A DNA stretch of 64,000 bases from Sycon ciliatum (taxonomy: Eukaryota > Porifera > Calcarea > Leucosolenida > Sycettidae), in assembly GCF_964019385.1 (NCBI RefSeq), contig NC_088647.1:1899985-1963984 (forward strand). Reading direction: 5' to 3'. Below, in pieces: positions 6,567 to 23,543 of the stretch. Under the pieces are notes generated by a model, which saw nothing but the letters and a program-made list of their open reading frames with translations, was not told the DNA's origin and ran no database searches. The number at the start of each line of letters is the position of its first letter. The stretch's first letter is position 1. The position numbers and the translations under genes were made by a program.

Positions 6567-6905
6567 GAAGGAGCAAATCCTCATTGTCTAGAGCACAAAA
6601 TCCTCTCAAATTTTTCGCTCTTTCTTAGAACAAGGGAGAATGAAATTGAAGACACCACTGCAGCTGTACTTAGTTGATAAATATGGTGGTAAAGACACAC
6701 CTGGCAATATGGCGGTAAACACACGCCTGCCCACACACGCTCTCTAGGCTGCACAGTTCTGGCACAGAGCTCTCCTTCTCACCACCACCACCATCAGTTC
6801 GCGCCTGGCGCCTGGTCGATGCATGGCTGGCGGTATCCGGCATAACAGGCTGGTACATCAAGTAGCGCATGGCACATAGATGATGACACAGCAACGACAT
6901 AGCTC

Positions 6906-6949
6906 GATTGCGACGTACCTTTCGTCCCCGCTGGACTCATCAGGCAATC
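6906..6949 (-). ncRNA. Hammerhead ribozyme on the opposite arm, damaged stem III
   Basis: The mirror copy keeps the 6-bp stem I, CTGATGA, the 4-bp stem II, GAAA and the GTC cleavage triplet. The base after GAAA is G rather than C (plus-strand position 6919), so stem III keeps only the A-U pair and has a G-G mismatch. Weak or no self-cleavage is expected. The change breaks the palindrome at this point and so arose after, or during, formation of the dimer. Confidence 0.8.
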
Positions 6950-7195
6950 TTCTTCCTTGGATGTCTTCATACGGAGCTTGACTCGGGAGAATGAAATTGA
7001 AGACACCACTGCAGCTGTACTTATGGTTGATAAATATGGTGGTAAAGACACACCTGGCAATATGGCGGTGTGTTTACCGCCATATTGCCAGGTGTGTCTT
7101 TACCACCATATTTATCAACCATAAGTACAGCTGCAGTGGTGTCTTCAATTTCATTCTCCCGAGTCAAGCTCTGTATGAAGACATCCAAGGAAGAA

Positions 7196-7239
7196 GATTG
7201 CCTGATGAGTCCAGCGGGGACGAAACGTACGTCGCAATC
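7196..7239 (+). ncRNA. Type I hammerhead ribozyme, complete core
   Basis: Stem I pairs GATTGC (7196-7201) with GCAATC (7234-7239). The conserved CTGATGA follows at 7202-7208. Stem II pairs GTCC (7209-7212) with GGAC (7218-7221) across a 5-nt loop. GAAA is at 7222-7225. Stem III is only two base pairs (A7225-T7232, C7226-G7231) closed by GTAC, and the cleavage triplet GTC ends at 7233. Every invariant core nucleotide is present. The very short stem III is typical of the minimal hammerheads described in Penelope-like elements and metazoan retrozymes. Predicted cleavage is after 7233, yielding a 2',3'-cyclic phosphate and a 5'-hydroxyl. Activity is not shown by sequence alone. Confidence 0.9.
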
Positions 7240-7756
7240 GAGCTATGTCGTTGCTGTGTCATCATCTATGTGCCATGCGCTACTTGATGTACCAGCCTGT
7301 TATGCCGGATACCGCCAGCCATGCATCGACCAGGCGCCAGGCGCGAACTGATGGTGGTGGTGGTGAGAAGGAGAGCTCTGTGCCAGAACTGTGCAGCCTA
7401 GAGAGCGTGTGTGGGCAGGCGTGTGTTTACCGCCATATTGCCAGGTGTGTCTTTACCACCATATTTATCAACCTTTCTTAGAACGAACGAATAAATGCAA
7501 AGGTTCGCCAAGCATTGGAGCCACCTACATTATATCCACGGTTGAAGTTCGATTTCACGCTGGTGAATATTCGCATTATGCTCTTCTCGGGAAAATAGGG
7601 AACAGTAGACATTGGTCACTTCAGGAATTGTGCAACAGAAGGCCGTAAGTTTTCGCAATCAAATTTGTCATTCATTTCTTTTTCAAATGTTATATTTTAT
7701 ATTCATATTAAGTTGCTGTTGTACTTTTTCATGAAACTTAAAACACATCTCTTTAG

Positions 7757-10419: not shown

Positions 10420-13400
10420 CAGAACAACGAATGCAAGCTACGGCAAGTGGATTAGAGGAACTGCCATGTTCATAGTTGACAAAGACATCCATTACATGTG
10501 CATAGCAGCAACGGCGGCAGCAGCACCAGTAGCAGCAACAACATCAAACAACGCAACGCCTTTTTACTTACACTTACCGAGTCCGAGTAGCATATTTCTT
10601 GTCTTTCAAACAAGACTTTTCATTCCAGAAGTAGTTCAACAATGCAGGCTACCTCCTACTCAGTCACCAACATCACATGGAGCTGATACTCCAGCAGTCC
10701 GCAGACAACAATCTCCTGAGATCACTAAGAACAGATTTAAAATTCAATATATAAATACATGACAAAATTGCACAGTATACGTACAACAGTTTGCATCCTT
10801 TACTAGTGCCTTCTAGTGTCCTTCGAGTTACACGAGTAAAAAAGGGAAATGACAATTTAATCTTGGCACCAACAACAGCCTAATCTTGCCAATGGCATGT
10901 TGTTCTGTGTCAACATGTCTGCCTCCACAGTATTAGCGGTACATAATGCTCTCAGCACATTCTTGTAAACACATCACAAAATTAGACAGTACATGTACTA
11001 CAGCTTGCATCCTTTACTTCCTCTAGTCTAGTGTCTTTCTAGTGTCCTTCTAGTGTTCTTCTAGCGTCCTTCTAGCGTCCTTCTAGTGTTCTTCTAGCGT
11101 CCTTCTAGCGTCCTTCTAGTGTCCTTCTAGCGTCCTTCTAGCGTCCTTCTAGCGTCCTTCTAGTGTCCTTCTAGTGTCCTTCTACCCCCCCCCTCTAGTG
11201 TTCTTCTAGCGTCCTTCTAGCGTCCTTCTAGTGTTCTTCTAGCGTCCTTCTAGCGTCCTTCTAGTGTCCTTCTAGCGTCCTTCTAGCGTCCTTCTAGCGT
11301 CCTTCTAGCGTCCTTCTAGCGTCCTTCTAGTGTCCTTCTAGTGTCCTTCTAGCGTCCTTCTAGCGTCCTTCTAGCGTCCTTCTAGCGTCCTTCTAGCGTC
11401 CTTCTAGCGTCCTTCTAGTGTCCTTCTAGTGTCCTTCTAGTGTCCTTCTAGTGTTCTTCGAGTTGCACGAAAAGGAAAAAGAGAAATGATAATTTAATCT
11501 CGGCACGAACAACAGCCTAACCTTGTGCATGGCGTTTGTTTCTGTGTACTATGTCTACCTACACGGTATTGACGGTATTCTGTACTCTCAGCACATTCAG
11601 TGGCTCCATTCTCCTAAGCGTTCATATGTATAGCTGTCAGTGTTTCCAGGTTGCCCGGAATCCACTTGGGGCGAGCAGCGCAGATGCCGAAACCTTTTGA
11701 AAATATGTCCTATAATACAAAATTCGTAGATGTGAATGAACAAGAACACATTGACAATGGTCATCTTAAGTCCCAGATGGGGCCTCTCAGAAGCTTGGAA
11801 TTTGAAGATCTTCTGAAACCCTTTTGGGGGCTCTGCCCCCCCCCCTCTCCCCACCCCATTATCTACACCTGGGACACCCCGGATCCCATCCCGGAAACCC
11901 TCTCACACACACTTCCAGCTACGGGCCTCTGGTAAATCAATGAATACCTAATAACATCTACTCGCTCACAAAAGTATGACCCGCTTCGTTGTACACCTGG
12001 ATTCCTACAACTCAAGACATCTGTAATATGCAGGCAGTCAAAAAAAAGGAGTAAGTACATTGTTGGACAACACCTTCTATTCCGGAATATCATGGCTCTT
12101 TTTCAATATCATTTTTCACATTTAAACTCAACAACATTTTTTTTATTGCTTCAGACATGCACACACTGTATAGACATGTTGAAACCAGACTAATACAGTA
12201 AGAACTTCATCATTAGCAACCTTGCAAACTTACACTTTCTGTTCATTGTCCTTCACACATCAATCAATGATCTCAGTACATACATTCTAAATGATCAAAG
12301 CAAAAAGTAACACCGATCAGAACTGGACATTTTCATAGTACAAGTTGCGATCTAAGGCCATCAGTTTAATACTGAATCACCTCAGTATTAATAACCCAAT
12401 ACCACTGAAAACATCTGGTTGTGAACAGAGGAAAGCCTTTGTGGTAGAACACAAAAGCCTGTTGGTCAGTGACAGCCGAAATGGCTACAGGTTTGCAGAA
12501 TTTATGCATCTGACCAACATCAAAGTTAAATTTCAGAATCAGATAGGTTTAATATAGCTGCCAATCGCCCTAACGTATGCCATATGCACTTTGTCTACAA
12601 CCTCTGCACAACCCTTCGCGCCATGCACTGTTACATACAACTGGTCTGACAGGGGTGCATGCATCAGAACAGATAGTTATCCTATGGTTATCCTGCCAAA
12701 TAGCTGTAGCTACCTCTATTCATCATATGCATGTCTGTACTAGGATGTGCATTACAAGAACACCTATATGGCTGGAGATTGGTGCACTTGCCTGTTCAAT
12801 ATACCTGTGTGTGATGTGATGACACTGCCGGCAATGAGATGATGGAAGGAGATCCTGGATGGACACTTCAGCTTCACTGTTTAGGGAATAATGTGAACAA
12901 AAGACAAAGCAGACTGATTGAACTTACCAACATGCTAAGCTACAAGCTTGAACTGACTGTGTTATCAACACAACTGCTCTCATAGAGCGTGTACGTGATG
13001 AAAATGATACGGGTGGATTAATTCAAGTAATCTGCCAAATATAAACAAAGTACGAGGGAATATCTTTACATGGGCAACTTTATGGCCAACAACCACAGGT
13101 CTTCACACACAGAAAGAAAATTAGCCTATCACTTTTCATGGAGGACAAAGCAAACTTCACCAAACACAGAGGAAGAGAAACATCCTCAAATCTTTGAATA
13201 CTCCAAAAGTGATTTTCGACCATACTTTGTTTCCAGAAGCTACACGACCATCAGCCATTTGAAATCCTGGCTTCCTACAATCCGAGACATCTGATATTTG
13301 GAAACAGTCAAAAGATAAAAAGTGAAAATACCTGAACATGGAGCAACTAGCAGTCCAAAGAGACTTTTTCTACAACTCATTTCACAACCAGTTAAGAGGA

Positions 13401-14640: not shown

Positions 14641-14821
14641 TGTAACTGATTCACTGTTACTACTAACACTAGGAATAGGATACACTTATCACCTGCTATT
14701 ATCACGCTGCTGCTGTTAGGTGTTATGTCCATCATTGCTTGTTCATGTATATAAGAATGCATTATGGCAAGGATCATTGCTTATTCCAAGAATGACTACT
14801 GAAGTTAGTTGGACTGTTACA
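14641..14821 (+). repeat. 5' LTR of the chromovirus
   Basis: The LTR begins TGTAACTGATTC and ends GGACTGTTACA, giving TG...CA termini and short inverted ends (TGTAAC/GTTACA). A TATA box (TATATAAG) lies at 14748-14755, so the promoter is inside the LTR. It matches the 3' LTR apart from base 7. Confidence 0.97.
14748..14755 (+). promoter_or_regulatory. TATA box of the LTR promoter
   Basis: TATATAAG lies about 70 bp before the end of the LTR, where the U3/R promoter of a short LTR is expected. The same sequence occurs in the 3' LTR at 19747-19754. Transcription would start some 25-30 bp downstream, leaving a very short R/U5. Confidence 0.6.
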
Positions 14822-14822
14822 C

Positions 14823-14842
14823 TGGTAGCAAGAGGATGGTTT
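14823..14842 (+). promoter_or_regulatory. Primer-binding site for initiator tRNA-Met
   Basis: TGGTAGCAAGAGGATGGTTT begins one base after the LTR. It complements the 3' end of animal initiator tRNA-Met (TGGTAGCA, then GAGGATGGTTT) except for one extra A after the eighth base. Initiator tRNA-Met is the common primer of Ty3/Gypsy chromoviruses. The extra base would bulge in the primer duplex. Confidence 0.75.
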
Positions 14843-15729
14843 TTCTTTTCGTCATGTTCGGGCTATGCGCAGTGGCCGCATTAGTCGCCTACGGTATATT
14901 CGAGATTCAGAAGCGTCTGAATCACCTTATCACACTCGGTCAGTGCGATGGATCAGATCAAACGCCAAGGCGTGCTCAAGCTCCCAGCGGAGAGAGGCCA
15001 CGCATGCGCCATGTTAAGTCTCCGCCTGTGTTTCGTGGAGATACAAGAGAGTTCAAGGAGTGGGCCTTCGCCATCGAACTCGCCATGAAGTCCCTGCAGC
15101 TGGACAACGCGGAGGAGCGCTTGAGCTACGCGGCGAGTTTTCTGGAGGGCAACGCTCGTCTTTGGTTTATCGCCTCTCAGGAGGCAAACACGCTGTTTTT
15201 CGACTGGCCAGACCTGAAGAGCAAGCTGGGAGAAGTGTACGGCCCGGTTTATGACAGGGAACAGGCGCGCATCGACTTATTCGCTCTTCACCAAGATGAG
15301 ACTCTTGACGAATACATCAACAAATTTTCGCGGCTTAGCTTACAAGTTCCCGAGCTTGATGACCACTCCAGAGCTATCTTGTTCACGCGTGGGCTGGCTC
15401 AGGGCCTAAGCGGTGAGGTACTTAGGGAGCATCCGCAACATTTGGCCCAAGCCATACGAGCTGCGGTCTCAGCAGACCAGTCGATGCGGCTAGCCCAAGC
15501 AAGCTACGCCAAGGCAGTGCCCAAGCAAGCTACGCCAAGGCAGTGCGCGCACCAGGGCATCAGAGGCGCCAGCCTGGACCCTGGTCAAGCCAACCAACAC
15601 CATCCGGTGGGAGAGAAACCAGGGAGCCAGAGGGTCGTTCAAGGCTGTGTTTCACCTGCAGGAAACCCGGCCATATTGCCAGATTCTGTCCAGAAGGAGG
15701 GAGGAACGCCACAAGCAAGCCTTCTTTAA
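14836..15729 (+). pseudogene. gag: gag (matrix/capsid part), frame broken before the zinc knuckle
   Basis: Gag forms the particle that packages the retrotransposon RNA. From the first ATG, inside the primer site, the frame gives 297 residues. A hydrophobic stretch (MVFLFVMFGLCAVAALVAYG) covers residues 1-20 or so. The retrotransposon Gag capsid region follows, from about residue 60 (VFRGDTREFKEWAFAIELAM) through LFALHQDETLDEYINKFSRL to about residue 215. A later ATG at 15004 would start just before the capsid and drop the hydrophobic segment. The 26-bp sequence starting CCCAAGCAAGCTACG is present twice in tandem (15494-15519 and 15520-15545). The second copy shifts the frame, so the last 60-odd residues are unrelated to Gag and end at TAA 15727-15729. 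Confidence 0.88.
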
Positions 15730-15746
15730 ACGATGGACGCCAGTAA
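15546..15746 (+). pseudogene. Detached nucleocapsid zinc-knuckle segment of gag
   Basis: The frame that continues gag, were there a single copy of the 26-bp repeat, is open here and ends at TAA 15744-15746. It encodes a basic stretch and then a CCHC knuckle (15648-15689) with spacing C-X2-C-X4-H-X4-C. This is the RNA-binding motif of Gag nucleocapsid. No start codon of its own connects it to the capsid frame, so it is probably not translated from this copy. Confidence 0.85.
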
Positions 15747-15799
15747 GGAAGGGAGTGCGACTACTGGCGAACACGAGAGCACCCAGGAATAGGCCATGA

Positions 15800-18700
15800 A
15801 TCAAAGTTCAGAACAAATTCAGCCCCTTAGCAAATGAGGAACCACGCCTCGAGGAGACCGAAATTCAAGCCTCGCCTGTCAAGCATTCGTCACCTGATAC
15901 TGTTGGCCGGCCTAATGAAGTAACCACCAGCACAGGGAGCATTTCCGCCGACAACGAACACGACCTAATGCGCGTCCAGGGCAAGATAAATGGACGTCGC
16001 GTTACCATGCTACTGGATTCTGGGTCAACCCACGACTTCATTTCAACTGACCTTGTCAAGAAGCACAACATCTCCACAACAACCGGTAGCGACGTCCTGA
16101 ACGTCACACTTGCTGATGGATCGGTCCGCTCACAGCCTATTACGAAAACGGACAGCTTGAAGACCGTAGTCGGCGACTTTAGCGAGCACCAACAGTTCCT
16201 AGTATTCCCTATGACGCGGTATGACGTGATCCTCGGCAAACCATGGCTGACCCGGACGAACCCACAGATCAATTTTCGTACCAATGAAATCAAGCTGGAG
16301 GGTGGATCCATCATCTGTCAACCGAGTGAAAGTGATGGCACGGACAAATCCAACCCACCGATCGAGACGTTCCTCATCTCAGGGAAGCAGGCTAGGCATG
16401 CAATGAGAGGTGGCGCAGAAGGAATCCTAGCGTATGTGACAGCAGATCCGGACGAGCCACAGACGGTGGATAGTCCGGGTAGGGAGGATCAGAAGGATTT
16501 CAAGGACCTGCTGAAGGAGTTCGGGGACGTCTTTCCCGATGAGCTTCCAAACAAGCTGCCACCCAGAAGAGGCGCAGATCACGAGATAAAAACGGAAGAA
16601 GGAGCTAAACCGCCATCTCGTGCAGCATATCGTTTACCAAAACCAGAGATGGATGAGCTTCAAGCTCAGCTCACCGAGCTGCTCCGTAGAGGATTCATCC
16701 AGCCCAGCAAATCCCCATACAGAGCCCCTGTGTTCTTCGTAAAGAAAGCGGATGGAACGCTTCGAATGGTATGCGACTGGCGTGAGCTAAACCGCATAAC
16801 CATTAAGAACAAGGCATGCCTACTGAATATTGACGACCTCTTTGATACCGTCCAAGGCAGTGCGTATTTCACCAAGCTAGATCTGAGGTCTGGTTACAAT
16901 CAGATTCGAATAGAAGAAACAGATATTCCGAAGACAGCAATAAATACCCCATTCGGTCACTTTCAGTTCACAGTGATGGGTTTCGGCCTAACAAATGCCC
17001 CGGCAACATTCCAAACCTTGATGAACAGTGTCCTCCAGCCATACCTGCGTAAATTCGTTGTGGTGTTTCTAGACGATATCCTCATATTCAGCAAATCATG
17101 GGAGGAGCACCTCGATCATGTCAGAACCATCTTAAACGCCCTCAGGAGGAATGAGCTATATTGCAAACCGTCTAAATGTGAATTCGGCCGGACAGACGTT
17201 CTGTTTCTTGGGCACCGGATAGACGGCCAATGCATTTCTCCAGATCCAGAGAAGATCAAGGCCGTGCATAACTGGCCTGTCCCGACGACGGTCACGCACG
17301 TAAGACAGTTTCTGGGATTCGCTAATTACTTTCGAAGGTTCATTAACCATTTCTCGGCCATCTCCAAACCCCTGGAGGAACTGACAGGGAAACATGTGCG
17401 CTTCGAGTGGAATCAGACTCGACAGGAGGCATTTGAGCGATTAAAGTCTGCTCTGCTGGATGCACCAGTGTTGCGACTAGCAAACGTCAGTCAGGATTTC
17501 CGCGTTGAGACTGACGCAAGTGACTTTGCTGTGGCAGGGGTCTTAACGCAGCAAGCAGAGGACCAGTCCTGGCATCCTGTGGCTTACGTGAGCCGAAAGC
17601 TGTCTTCTGCCGAACGGAATTACACGGCCGCCGAGCGAGAAACTTTGGCTGTAGTGTACGCCCTGCAGTGCTGGCGAGTCTACCTATTTCGCCACTTTCA
17701 ACTCTACACCGACAACATGGGAGTTGTCTACCTCAGGACCAAACCAAACTTAACCAAGAGAGAGGCTCGATGGATTGAATTCCTGGCCGACTATGACTAC
17801 ACGGTACATCACAAGCCAGGGAAGTGTAACATAGCAGACCCGTTGTCACGTCGACCAGACTTGGAACTGAATGGAATCGAGTTCTCTCTGGATGTGAATC
17901 AAGGAATTGCGAATCAGATCTCAGCAGGGTATGATAGTGACCCAGAGCTTTCGCCAGTAATCAAGCGCTTGATGGCTTGCAGCGAAGACGCCATGCATGA
18001 GCGATACGTCTGGAACAGTGTGGACCGGCGGCTGTACCTAGTAACATCGGGCGATGCTCGCCTCGGCATTCCTCGCGGTCCGGTACGGCTGCAACTGCTC
18101 AAACAGAATCATGATTGCCTGACGGCCGGCCATCCGGGGAGAGACAGGACCTACCTGAAGCTGAGCAGATACTTCTATTGGCCAGGCATGAGAAGTACTG
18201 TGAAGGACTTCGTTAAATCTTGCGACCGGTGCCAACGCGTAAAGGGTAGCCAGACCAAGGCAGGACTGTTGCAGTCCCTTCCAGTCCCCGAACAGCCCTG
18301 GACAGACATCAGCATGGATTTCATCATGGCACTGCCGCTGACCTGCCGAGGACATAGCGCCATTCTAACCTTTGTGGACCGTCTGACGAAGTATGTGCAC
18401 CTGATCCCGACGACTGTTCATGTTGACTCTAAGGAGGCAGCCCGATTGTACGTGGATCATGTGTTTGCTGCCCATGGCTTGAGCAAAACGATAGTTTGTG
18501 ATCGAGATCCGCGATTCACGTCGGTGTTCTTCAAGGAGGTTTTCAGTATTCTTGGCGTGGAGCTAAAAATGAGCACGGCCAACCACCCGCAGACCGATGG
18601 CATGACTGAGCGTGTGAACCGTGTCATTGAGGATACGCTAAGAGCTTTCGTCAACCATAGGCAAAACAATTGGGATGAACTCCTATCGCTATGTGAGTTT

Positions 18701-19024
18701 GCGATCAACAATGCCGATCAAGCGTCAACAGGTAACACGCCATTTTTCCTCAACCATGGATGCCATCCAGTTACTCCCTCGAGCTTATTGACGAAGCAGA
18801 AAGCTGGAGCTGGCATGGACACGAATGGTCCGCTGTCATGGCTGGATGGCCGCGTAGAGGCACTACGTGAGGCACAGGATGCCATCGTGGCGGCGCAGGC
18901 CCGACAATCATTGTATGCGGATCGAGGACGGGTGGAGGACGCCCTGAAGGAGGGGGATGAGGTGCTGGTCTTCAGGGACTTCCTGCTGACGCCCGAGGAA
19001 CGAGACAGGCCTTCACACAATTAA
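15800..19024 (+). CDS. pol: Pol: protease, reverse transcriptase, RNase H, integrase
   Basis: The frame opens after TGA at 15797-15799; the first ATG is at 15968, giving 1018 residues. It lies in a third frame with no overlap with the gag frames, so its expression route is unclear. Numbering from that ATG: aspartic protease LLDSGST with catalytic D17; RT with LDLRSGYNQI and the catalytic VFLDDILIFS (D369, D370); RNase H with D516 (ETDAS), E558 and D582 (YTDN). Integrase has zinc-finger H715, H722, C752, C755 and the DD35E triad D784, D845, E881. All catalytic residues are present. The frame ends prematurely at TAA 19022-19024, after FRDFLLTPEERDRPSHN. The integrase C-terminal end and chromodomain continue in another frame, consistent with one missing base at about 19019-19021. 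Confidence 0.95.
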   Translation: MKVQNKFSPLANEEPRLEETEIQASPVKHSSPDTVGRPNEVTTSTGSISADNEHDLMRVQGKINGRRVTMLLDSGSTHDFISTDLVKKHNISTTTGSDVLNVTLADGSVRSQPITKTDSLKTVVGDFSEHQQFLVFPMTRYDVILGKPWLTRTNPQINFRTNEIKLEGGSIICQPSESDGTDKSNPPIETFLISGKQARHAMRGGAEGILAYVTADPDEPQTVDSPGREDQKDFKDLLKEFGDVFPDELPNKLPPRRGADHEIKTEEGAKPPSRAAYRLPKPEMDELQAQLTELLRRGFIQPSKSPYRAPVFFVKKADGTLRMVCDWRELNRITIKNKACLLNIDDLFDTVQGSAYFTKLDLRSGYNQIRIEETDIPKTAINTPFGHFQFTVMGFGLTNAPATFQTLMNSVLQPYLRKFVVVFLDDILIFSKSWEEHLDHVRTILNALRRNELYCKPSKCEFGRTDVLFLGHRIDGQCISPDPEKIKAVHNWPVPTTVTHVRQFLGFANYFRRFINHFSAISKPLEELTGKHVRFEWNQTRQEAFERLKSALLDAPVLRLANVSQDFRVETDASDFAVAGVLTQQAEDQSWHPVAYVSRKLSSAERNYTAAERETLAVVYALQCWRVYLFRHFQLYTDNMGVVYLRTKPNLTKREARWIEFLADYDYTVHHKPGKCNIADPLSRRPDLELNGIEFSLDVNQGIANQISAGYDSDPELSPVIKRLMACSEDAMHERYVWNSVDRRLYLVTSGDARLGIPRGPVRLQLLKQNHDCLTAGHPGRDRTYLKLSRYFYWPGMRSTVKDFVKSCDRCQRVKGSQTKAGLLQSLPVPEQPWTDISMDFIMALPLTCRGHSAILTFVDRLTKYVHLIPTTVHVDSKEAARLYVDHVFAAHGLSKTIVCDRDPRFTSVFFKEVFSILGVELKMSTANHPQTDGMTERVNRVIEDTLRAFVNHRQNNWDELLSLCEFAINNADQASTGNTPFFLNHGCHPVTPSSLLTKQKAGAGMDTNGPLSWLDGRVEALREAQDAIVAAQARQSLYADRGRVEDALKEGDEVLVFRDFLLTPEERDRPSHN

Positions 19025-19386
19025 GGCTCAAGTGGTATGGGCCGTTCAAGGTGCAGAAGAAAGTGGCCCCGAATGCGTACAGATTAGCTCTTCCAAGAAT
19101 CATTCGGGCCCATCCAGTGTTCAATATTGCTGCCCTCAAGCTGTACCATGGCAATGAGATACCGGGCCGTACTCAGCCGGCACCTCCACCCCTAACCGAT
19201 GCGGATGGCCATACGCGGTACATTGTCGAAAAGGTGTTGTCGCACAAGAAGAGAGGACGGCGCACGCAGTACCTAGTGAAATGGAAGGGCTACCGAGATG
19301 CCACCTGGGAGCCGGAGGAATACTTGATGGATGAAGCAGGAAACGCTATTATTCCGCTGAAAACCTACCTGGACCGTTTTTCATAA
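19021..19386 (+). pseudogene. Separated integrase C-terminus and chromodomain
   Basis: Open in a different frame from the body of pol, this 122-codon stretch first carries the conserved GPF/AYRLALP region of chromoviral integrases. It then has a chromodomain: RYIVEKVLSHKK, YLVKWKGY and TWEPEEYL, including the aromatic residues that line a methyl-lysine cage. Chromodomains steer integration toward particular chromatin in chromoviruses. An internal ATG exists only at 19315; CTG or GTG codons precede it. As read it is unlikely to be made as a fusion, unless ribosomal frameshifting occurs near 19020. Confidence 0.9.
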
Positions 19387-21808: not shown

Positions 21809-22408
21809 CAACTGACAACCGCTCTATTCGGGGAGCTGCTATTCATAACAACTGACAACCGCTCTATTCGGGGAGCTGCTATTCATAACAACTGACAACC
21901 GCTCTATTCGGGGAGCTGCTATTCATAACAACTGACAACCGCTCTATTCGGGGAGCTGCTATTCATAACAACTGATAACCGCTCTATTCGGGGAGCTGCT
22001 ATTCATAACAACTGATAACCGCTCTATTCGGGGAGCTGCTATTCATAACAACTGATAACCGCTCTATTCGGGGAGCTGCTATTCATAACAACTGATAACC
22101 GCTCTATTCGGGGAGCTGCTATTCATAACAACTGATAACCGCTCTATTCGGGGAGCTGCTATTCATAACAACTGATAACCGCTCTATTCGGGGAGCTGCT
22201 ATTCATAACAACTGATAACCGCTCTATTCGGGGAGCTGCTATTCATAACAACTGATAACCACTCTATTCGGGGAGCTGCTATTCATAACAACTGATAACC
22301 GCTCTATTCGGGGAGCTGCTATTCATAACAACTGATAACCGCTCTATTCGGGGAGCTGCTATTCATAACAACTGATAACCGCTCTATTCGGGGAGCTGCT
22401 ATTCATAA
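21809..22408 (+). repeat. 40-bp minisatellite, exactly 15 copies
   Basis: Units of 40 bp begin CAACTGACAACCGCTC or CAACTGATAACCGCTC. The first four carry GAC and the remaining eleven GAT; one (about 22261) has ACTCTATT. Ordinary units hold this interval once, bounded by two copies of CAACTGA, so the array is an amplification between these 7-bp repeats. The plus-strand open frame through the first units is a by-product. Confidence 0.95.
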
Positions 22409-23543
22409 CAACTGAATAGAGTGGTTGTCAGTAGACAAACCTCCTTTTCTCCGAATATGAAAACAAATAATATATGAAAATTATTGTCCTTCGATAATGG
22501 TCACCTTTGCTAGTTTTCACACAAGCCAAATGAACAAATAAATGAGAAGAATGGGAAGAATGGGAAGGCCTTCATGGTTACATCTTCATTGCCTTGGTCA
22601 CGGTCCCATACTTGTTGTAGTCTAGTAGCATCACACATACTTTTCGTCATATGAGGTCAGCAGCTAAAAACCCATCTTACACTATGGCATAGTCTATTGT
22701 CTATCTTTGCACATACACTCCAGTGTACCCATCACCAATCAGAGCGGTTCCCTGCCTGCATTTTGTCTCAATGCAGAATTGAACCTCTCACATGGTACGT
22801 GTACCACAACATCATCCGGTGTATCAAAAGTCAAAACACACTCACACGTGTGTGTACAATGCTGGTCTATGAATACATCAGAACAATCACCGGAAGCAAA
22901 CCTAGCTGACGTCCTCACAGAGTGTGAAGAGATCATAGCTTGTAATCTACAGGTGATGATGTCCATATGCACACATTACTTGGGATGCTGCTAAACATGC
23001 CAATATGATTCTTTACCTAGACCGGCTCGCGTCGTACGCTTAAACAAATCCGGTAGTTCCCTTCAATGACATCAATGACATCAACTGCACAACCTTCATA
23101 AACTTTCCCCCGATCAAGCGGATGTTTATAAAACTATGTTACCCACCTCATTTCGACTAGATCAACACCACACCAGTCACATTTTACAAACCTTTCCCTT
23201 ACCACCCGTTGCTATTGTTCCCATGCTGAACCCTGTCGAAATGGCTATCTTGAACAGATTCCTGTCCAGATCTGGCATGGAATGTGGGAAAACGTTACAC
23301 GGTGGGTAATACCGTACTCAAAATTTGCTCTCATCGGCCAGGAAACGGAGAACCAATTTACTCCGTCAATAGTGCTTACAATATTATTCCCTCGCGGAAA
23401 TGACCACCACTAGAAGTTGAAATAACTCCGCAGGAAAGACATCTGCCAGACGCAAACACAAAATACAGTGAAAAGTACATCAACTTGACATAGTGTGATT
23501 TCCGTAGTATAAGTCATACTAGACCATATTTGTCGGAGAATAG

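What the first reader, a model, noticed from the sequence alone, without database searches (positions are those of the whole stretch)
6635..7472. Head-to-head dimer of a hammerhead-ribozyme retroelement forming an 0.8-kb palindrome
Seen: 397-bp arms around a 6-nt centre, each arm being a 353-bp unit with its first 40-odd bases repeated at the end, flanked by a 12-bp direct repeat. Known: type I hammerheads with terminal repeats mark Penelope-like elements and metazoan retrozymes, which are usually tandem head-to-tail. Inference: a head-to-head dimer is unusual. A transcript through it would be a long double-stranded hairpin with a ribozyme on each strand, and could feed small-RNA pathways as well as circular RNA.
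Basis: partly seen in the sequence, partly recalled or inferred. Interest (0 to 1): 0.92.

Follow-up and report, generated by a model that had tools for sequence, protein, structure and literature searches.

The report
Sponge ribozyme retroelement inserted head-to-head
The palindrome is an insertion of a small ribozyme-bearing retroelement that is abundant in this sponge genome, and the way its copies end suggests that Penelope-type retrotransposons insert it by copying its RNA from both edges of the DNA cut.

Summary
Window 6632-7472 is an insertion of a 353-nt retrozyme-like unit (type I hammerhead) in two divergent arms with a 12-bp target duplication; nine unoccupied paralogous targets in the window align across it. 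The host is most likely the calcareous sponge Sycon ciliatum; the ribozyme core occurs 892 times. Head-to-head is the usual form here: in 38 two-armed insertions analysed, 33 have one 'long' (U28-47) and one 'short' (U346-353) outer end, 5 have one of these plus another site, none has two alike (5, 3 and 0 of the eight sampled by position). Inner joins are scattered; both arms share rare variants. Six two-armed insertions of two resident Penelope-like families follow the same rule, with 9-13-bp duplications. This fits target-primed reverse transcription from both sides of the cut, on one circular or multimeric RNA, by a Penelope-type enzyme with two start sites about 36 nt apart, and argues against self-priming. 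The window's near-perfect palindrome is a chance coincidence of inner ends. Sequence homology to the resident Penelope elements is only suggestive, and no RNA data were available. New variant of a known kind, with a testable answer to who moves animal retrozymes.

The parts
6620..6631 (.). left target-site duplication CTTTCTTAGAAC
   Evidence: one diverged version at each of nine unoccupied paralogous sites
6632..6672 (-). tail: long outer end of the left arm (U40 to U2 plus two extra bases)
6673..7069 (-). left arm: one full unit plus part of the next, ribozyme sense on the minus strand, inner end U309
6906..6949 (-). hammerhead of the left arm, 31 bits, below the Rfam gathering score
7068..7075 (.). 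central junction between the two arms, 2-nt microhomology GT
7068..7472 (+). right arm: U301-353 then a full unit; short outer end at U352/353
7109..7127 (+). predicted hairpin UAUUUAU-CAACC-AUAAGUA; the short end falls at the 3' side of its AC-rich loop
   Evidence: centroid fold; the whole stretch is not more stable than shuffles (z +0.97)
7137..7187 (+). second predicted stem-loop; long-end start sites (U27-41) fall nearly all in the 5' part of its loop
7196..7239 (+). type I hammerhead ribozyme, predicted cleavage after C7233
   Evidence: RF00163, 35.4 bits; the cleavage position rests on the recalled motif
7473..7484 (.). right target-site duplication CTTTCTTAGAAC

Best explanation
This is a non-autonomous, retrozyme-like element of a sponge, moved by the machinery of Penelope-like elements (PLEs). 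Tandem copies are transcribed; the hammerhead can cut the transcript into 353-nt pieces that may be circularised (inferred). A PLE reverse transcriptase/GIY-YIG endonuclease, probably as a dimer, makes two nicks about 12-13 bp apart. Both 3' ends then prime copying of the same sense RNA, one from a start site near U36 (long end) and the other from a start site near U353 (short end). On a circular or multimeric template each cDNA runs for a variable length, often several units, and the two loose cDNA ends are joined at a variable point with slight microhomology. The result is a divergent pair of arrays with one tail and a target duplication. If the second priming fails, a one-armed array, mostly with the long end, remains. 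Seen in sequence: the insertion, the end rule, the scattered inner joins, the shared template and the same rule in six resident PLE insertions. Inferred: identity of the enzyme, the dimer, the circular form of the RNA.
For: A target duplication of 8 bp or more was found in 33 of 42 elements with a long end, of 12-14 bp in 31 of the 33, and nine empty paralogous targets exist for the window copy. Of 38 two-armed insertions 33 are long+short, 3 long+other, 2 short+other, 0 long+long, 0 short+short: 28 of 30 long+short among the places taken by score, 5 of 8 in the positional sample, the rest with one end elsewhere. Both arms share 20 rare variants where pairing arms of different loci gives 0.8 on average, at most 6, 0 of 5000 reaching 20. 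Inner ends differ evenly round the unit; microhomology is 1.39 against 0.67 nt at random, p 0.005, in the 18 of 25 joins without a gap. Long ends overlap the target by 2.2 nt on average against 0.46 in the null, 0 of 10000 draws. Arms reach 4.9 kb, medians 629 nt (long-end arm) and 360 nt (short-end arm) in the 33, so many exceed one linear cut monomer. Resident PLE families A (L070, L074, L075/L076) and B (L091-L093) show the same rule in 6 of 6 two-armed insertions, duplications 9-13 bp, tails about 22-37 nt. A purified PLE protein cuts and extends both strands from two adjacent internal RNA sites (PMC11167929, main text read).
Against: No firm sequence homology between the unit and the resident PLE ends: shuffles reaching the observed score were 9 of 1000 for one PLE-B copy, 40 of 1000 for another, 37 of 1000 for PLE-C, 500 of 1000 for PLE-A; for the tails alone 50 (A), 829 (B) and 602 (C) of 2000; in an earlier test 114 (A), 18 and 53 (two B), 183 (C) of 500. 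Five of 38 two-armed insertions have one end elsewhere (U82, U144, U152, U310, U330), three of them in the eight sampled by position. Seven of 25 joins show 2-13 unexplained bases. The RNA stretch is not unusually stable. GC of the unit is 52%, above the range given for metazoan retrozymes. No RNA evidence of transcription, cleavage or circles. The published PLE did not need its ribozyme in vitro. I did not look for LINEs in this genome.
Confidence: 0.72

Rival explanations
1. Self-priming: a single cDNA folds back on itself (as proposed for Penelope with an antisense template) and the palindrome is that fold-back.
For: The window's own centre, 6 nt between 397-nt arms, looks like a fold-back; proposed in print for Penelope (PMC3846280 Discussion).
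Against: Inner ends of the two arms are unrelated in position: 1 of 25 within 10 nt, differences uniform (KS p 0.94). Outer ends are two different preferred sites next to the target duplication.
Confidence: 0.06
2. A LINE-type enzyme mobilised the RNA and L1-style twin priming produced the inversion.
For: Divergent arms, microhomology joins and target duplications are also marks of L1 twin priming (recalled).
Against: In L1 the second priming site varies (recalled); here the two outer ends lie at the same two sites about 36 nt apart in 33 of 38. The same two-site rule occurs in the resident PLE insertions examined. By eye no poly(A) tract marks the ends printed. Resident LINEs were not searched for.
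Confidence: 0.12
3. DNA-level copying or rearrangement: a master inverted array was duplicated, or tandem arrays were inverted after insertion.
For: Some loci look like segmental duplicates (L030/L031, L054/L055, L057/L058), and long arrays show higher-order periodicity.
Against: Apart from those duplicates, the joins resolved differ from locus to locus, as do the unit numbers, and the duplications flanking them differ.
Confidence: 0.04
4. Assembly or read chimera.
For: Fold-back chimeras can create palindromes; long reads were not available to me.
Against: Matching target duplications at 33 of 42 elements with a long end, asymmetric ends, and empty paralogous sites for the window copy.
Confidence: 0.03

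Closest known systems
Metazoan non-LTR retrozymes (Cervera and de la Pena 2020, PMC7229834; passages seen)
   Same: Short (353 nt) units with a type I hammerhead in tandem, target duplications longer than 4 bp, PLEs present in the same genome
   Different: Copies are mostly head-to-head with one tail per insertion; 'inverted' occurs 0 times in that paper's main text; GC is 52%; sponge host ('sponge', 'porifera' 0 times)
Penelope-like elements with pLTRs and 'tail' (PMC3846280, passages and Discussion seen; PMC11167929, main text read)
   Same: Head-to-head arms, tail on one of the inverted ends, two adjacent internal RT start sites, hammerhead, target duplication
   Different: No RT/endonuclease reading frame in the unit; unit is small and tandem; arms are often multimeric; hammerhead scores as a full type I motif in Rfam, which the PLE copies do not; duplications mostly 12-14 bp against the 8-10 bp in the rotifer passages
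L1 twin priming (recalled)
   Same: Two primed cDNAs, divergent orientation, microhomology join
   Different: Second start site at a preferred place, not opportunistic; template circular or multimeric
Plant LTR retrozymes (PMC4918200, search listing only)
   Same: Non-autonomous hammerhead retroelement with proposed circular RNA intermediate
   Different: Type III hammerheads, LTRs, Gypsy machinery, 4-bp duplications (as stated in the PMC7229834 passages)

Membership tests
Metazoan non-LTR retrozyme | type I hammerhead in the units | tested here: met
   RF00163 at or above the gathering score in 13 of 14 loci scanned, 58 hits, none in L055; left arm of the window below it; not every unit passes
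Metazoan non-LTR retrozyme | tandem units of about 150-450 bp | tested here: met
   353-nt unit, up to 18 full units in one insertion
Metazoan non-LTR retrozyme | host is an animal | tested here: met
   proteins named Sycon ciliatum lie on contigs of 28966952 bases (equal to C12) and 97974678 bases (C1 is 97973678); taxonomy; an inference from contig lengths
Metazoan non-LTR retrozyme | low GC (<50%) | tested here: not met
   52.4%
Metazoan non-LTR retrozyme | non-coding | tested here: inconclusive
   no ORF of 110 aa or more lies in the insertion, but the unit read round and round has an open stretch of 143 codons on the sense strand; it was not searched for homology
Metazoan non-LTR retrozyme | circular and linear RNA of unit length | not testable with these tools
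   no RNA data
Penelope-like element, autonomous | reading frame with RT and GIY-YIG endonuclease | tested here: not met
   none in the insertion; present in resident elements
Penelope-type insertion signature | tail of about 30-40 nt on one of two inverted ends | tested here: met
   33 of 38 two-armed insertions long+short, none with two alike; 6 of 6 resident PLE insertions examined, one of them (L092) with a tail of about 22 nt
Penelope-type insertion signature | RT start inside an AC-rich stem-loop | tested here: inconclusive
   short end in the CAACC loop of a predicted hairpin, fold not significant
Penelope-type insertion signature | sequence homology of ends to a resident PLE | tested here: inconclusive

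The most novel reading that the evidence does not exclude
One circular ribozyme RNA is copied at the same time by both protomers of a Penelope-type enzyme, each starting at its own neighbouring loop (U353 and about U36) and each extending one side of the same double-strand cut, so that two rolling-circle cDNAs are laid down in one event. The one-long-one-short rule would then be the footprint of two sites on one RNA being used once each, and would be general for Penelope elements and animal retrozymes.
Probability: 0.4. Interest if true: 0.82.

Novelty: new variant of a known kind. Interest (0 to 1): 0.62.

Why it matters
Who moves animal retrozymes is left open in the papers I could see, with PLEs the favoured candidate; the insertion signature found here ties a retrozyme-like family to Penelope-type insertion. 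It also bears on how Penelope head-to-head copies arise: the self-priming idea does not fit this family, two-sided target priming does. Because the units are short and present in hundreds, they give a countable record of the reaction.

Tried and rejected
Rejected or disfavoured: self-priming, L1-like random twin priming, DNA inversion, assembly artefact (see rivals). A linear monomer cut by the ribozyme as the only template was rejected: arms exceed one unit, and 1 of 50 inner ends lies within 8 nt of the predicted cut. Only this eukaryotic genome could be searched, so generality is untested.

Rows dropped: one search left out L027, L031 (duplicate of L030), L041 and L044. One search left out L031 and L044; five joins failed anchoring. 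One search kept only elements with a long end and left out L021, L022, L027, L031, L044, L051, L054, L057, L058 and L059. One search left out the duplicates L031, L054 (short+short as it stands, but its apparent duplicate L055 is short+long) and L058, and L022 (split by another insertion); pieces under 200 nt were dropped; in L033 a neighbouring fragment (2694-2794) that runs the other way was cut off before the orientation check: it has the long end and its own flanking AAGTACA, so I take it for a second insertion. The first 40 places are the best-scoring for a query that includes the tail; L049 and follow position on C1. PLE insertions were chosen for being two-armed: L071 and the B loci L063, L064, L066, L067 were not resolved at both ends.

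Full report
What is there. Window 6632-7472 is an insertion made of one 353-nt unit in two divergent arms. I number the unit U1-U353 in ribozyme sense, U1 being window 7121. The left arm reads on the minus strand and ends outward at U40 plus two bases; the right arm reads on the plus strand and ends outward at U352/353. A 12-bp word flanks the whole, and nine paralogous copies of the target in the same window align straight across the joined flanks with one, more or less diverged, version of that word, so the event is an insertion with target duplication.

Where it is. The genome holding the window has 538 Mb in 313 contigs. Proteins named Sycon ciliatum in the protein search lie on contigs of 28966952 and 97974678 bases; C12 is 28966952 and C1 is 97973678 bases. 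I therefore take the host to be this calcareous sponge (taxonomy); the C1 figure differs by exactly 1000 bases, which I cannot explain.

How common it is. A search with window 6635-7040 found 170 matches at the 40 scored of 1229 candidate places. A 24-nt exact ribozyme core occurs 892 times, its reversed control 0 times. I fetched the 40 places, took one more with the pattern search (L049) and 12 more in order of position on C1.

The end rule. After the dropped rows listed in Tried and rejected, 38 two-armed insertions remain, and in these the arms point away from the centre. Thirty-three have one long and one short end, three a long and another end, two a short and another end; none has two long or two short ends. 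Among the 30 taken by score 28 are long+short; among the eight of the positional sample five are, and three have one end elsewhere. Of 16 one-armed pieces 10 end in the long site, 3 in the short site (one of them, L035 1-343, only because the fetched stretch begins there) and 3 in neither. So the long site looks like the primary start. Long-end start sites are U27-41, median 36, and long ends overlap the target by 2.2 nt on average against 0.46 expected, 0 of 10000 draws. A duplication of 8 bp or more was found in 33 of 42 elements with a long end: 12 bp in 13, 13 in 12, 14 in 6, 10 in 1 and 8 in 1.

The centre. Of the 25 joins that could be anchored, 18 have 0-4 nt of microhomology, mean 1.39 against 0.67 for random joins (p 0.005), and 7 have 2-13 bases not explained by either arm. 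The difference between the two inner ends is uniform round the unit (KS p 0.94), with 1 of 25 within 10 nt, the window itself. The striking palindrome is thus what chance gives now and then when two arms happen to stop at nearly the same place. Inner ends of the plus-strand arms taken alone are not uniform (p 0.005; minus-strand arms p 0.71), which I leave open.

One template. Left and right arms of a locus share rare variants: 20 in 28 loci, at least one in 14 of them; when left arms are paired with right arms of other loci the mean is 0.8, the maximum 6, and 0 of 5000 reach 20. In some loci all compared units of both arms are identical (for example L010, L033, L036). In the nine loci with four or more full units, 76 of 88 variable states are single-unit changes, as expected from later mutation; the other 12 are shared by units, some with a period of several units in the longest arrays, which suggests later expansion or a multimeric template. 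Arms reach 4.9 kb. A circle of one unit explains this most simply; a homogeneous multimer cannot be excluded.

RNA structure. The centroid fold puts the short start site in the loop of UAUUUAU-CAACC-AUAAGUA and nearly all long start sites in the loop of the next stem. The stretch as a whole is no more stable than shuffles (z +0.97, 168 of 200 shuffles fold at least as well), so this is a hint. Rfam hammerheads at or above the gathering score occur in 13 of the 14 loci scanned, 58 hits. In the window only the right copy passes; the left copy has 31 bits.

The resident Penelope elements. A GIY-YIG search found 13 matches; the best, on contig C291, is a bacterial UvrC gene and not a PLE. Family A includes an uninterrupted 807-codon frame; the GIY-YIG domain passes the Pfam cut-off, and an RT domain is listed for relatives of this protein, weakly (below the curated cut-off) in the two that I scanned. 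Copies of families A, B and C carry a minimal hammerhead-like motif near their 3' ends (motif known from recall and the papers). Of the two-armed insertions I looked at, L070, L074 and L075/L076 (A) and L091, L092 and L093 (B), all six have one end with a tail and one without. Tails are about 33-37 nt, in L092 about 22 nt. Duplications are 13, 11 and 12 bp for A and 10, 11 and 9 bp for B; in L091 four bases separate the repeat from the short end. L070 carries an extra insert inside one arm. These six were picked for being two-armed, not at random.

Link between the two. The unit and the PLEs share the geometry, not clearly the sequence. Alignments with cheap gaps are reached by 9 and 40 of 1000 shuffles for two B copies, 37 of 1000 for C and 500 of 1000 for A; the tails alone by 50 (A), 829 (B) and 602 (C) of 2000; an earlier test gave 114 (A), 18 and 53 (two B) and 183 (C) of 500. 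With this many comparisons I call it suggestive.

Literature. Frangieh et al. 2024 (PMC11167929; main text read) show that a purified PLE protein cuts and extends both target strands and starts at two adjacent internal RNA sites, the stretch between being the tail; they saw no difference in start site between strands. The genomic rule here adds a prediction that I did not see tested there: on one molecule the two strands use different sites. Arkhipova et al. 2013 (PMC3846280; passages and Discussion) describe head-to-head pLTRs with a tail optionally on one of the inverted ends, and propose self-priming on an antisense template, without excluding a sense one. Cervera and de la Pena 2020 (PMC7229834; passages) and the 2020 review (PMC7761336; passages) leave the enzyme that moves metazoan retrozymes open, with PLEs the strong candidate. 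Searches that bear on novelty; the combination hammerhead ribozyme, head-to-head and retrotransposon gave 0 papers. Two papers I looked for (Cervera 2014, a 2021 PLE survey) are not held, so earlier mention cannot be excluded.

Verdict. A real and abundant retrozyme-like family whose head-to-head form is the usual one in the places analysed. Most likely mechanism: bilateral target-primed reverse transcription by a Penelope-type enzyme from two neighbouring start sites on one circular or multimeric RNA. New variant of a known kind, interest 0.62.

Noticed in passing
window 14809-19386 (+): Ty3/Gypsy chromovirus-type element: gag, protease, RT, RNase H, integrase and chromodomain in three reading frames; described only.
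   Followed up: partly
window 887, 9139, 21048, 32648, 41992, 45074, 48175, 53363, 58077: A repeat of roughly 250-400 bp recurs in the same orientation through the window (67-73% identity to the joined flanks); the retroelement sits in one copy.
   Followed up: partly
window 11027-11459 and 21809-22415: Minisatellites: 11-bp unit in 39 copies and 40-bp unit in 15 copies at 99% match.
   Followed up: no
L022 (C13:2639600-2644700) 2137-2613: A 477-nt insertion splits the ribozyme region of one retroelement copy between repeats of GTAC.
   Followed up: no
G000:C1:69380846-69432476: Pairs of ribozyme cores recur every 6-8 kb, with one 24-kb gap, as if a larger block holding the element had been duplicated; the listing ends there.
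   Followed up: no
L062 (G000:C291:5914-6141): A bacterial UvrC gene (TIGR00194, 518 bits) on a contig of the assembly: symbiont or contaminant.
   Followed up: partly
L034, L011, L043: In the longest arrays some variants recur every few units, hinting at later expansion by unequal exchange or a multimeric template.
   Followed up: partly
L021 800-871, 1222-1293, 1555-1622: Three Rfam tRNA matches within 1 kb of a retroelement insertion into an ATT repeat.
   Followed up: no
L060 471-938 and L059 540-915: Outer ends at U144; in L060 the target word TGTCACCAAGT overlaps the unit there, as if a third start site had been chosen by homology.
   Followed up: no
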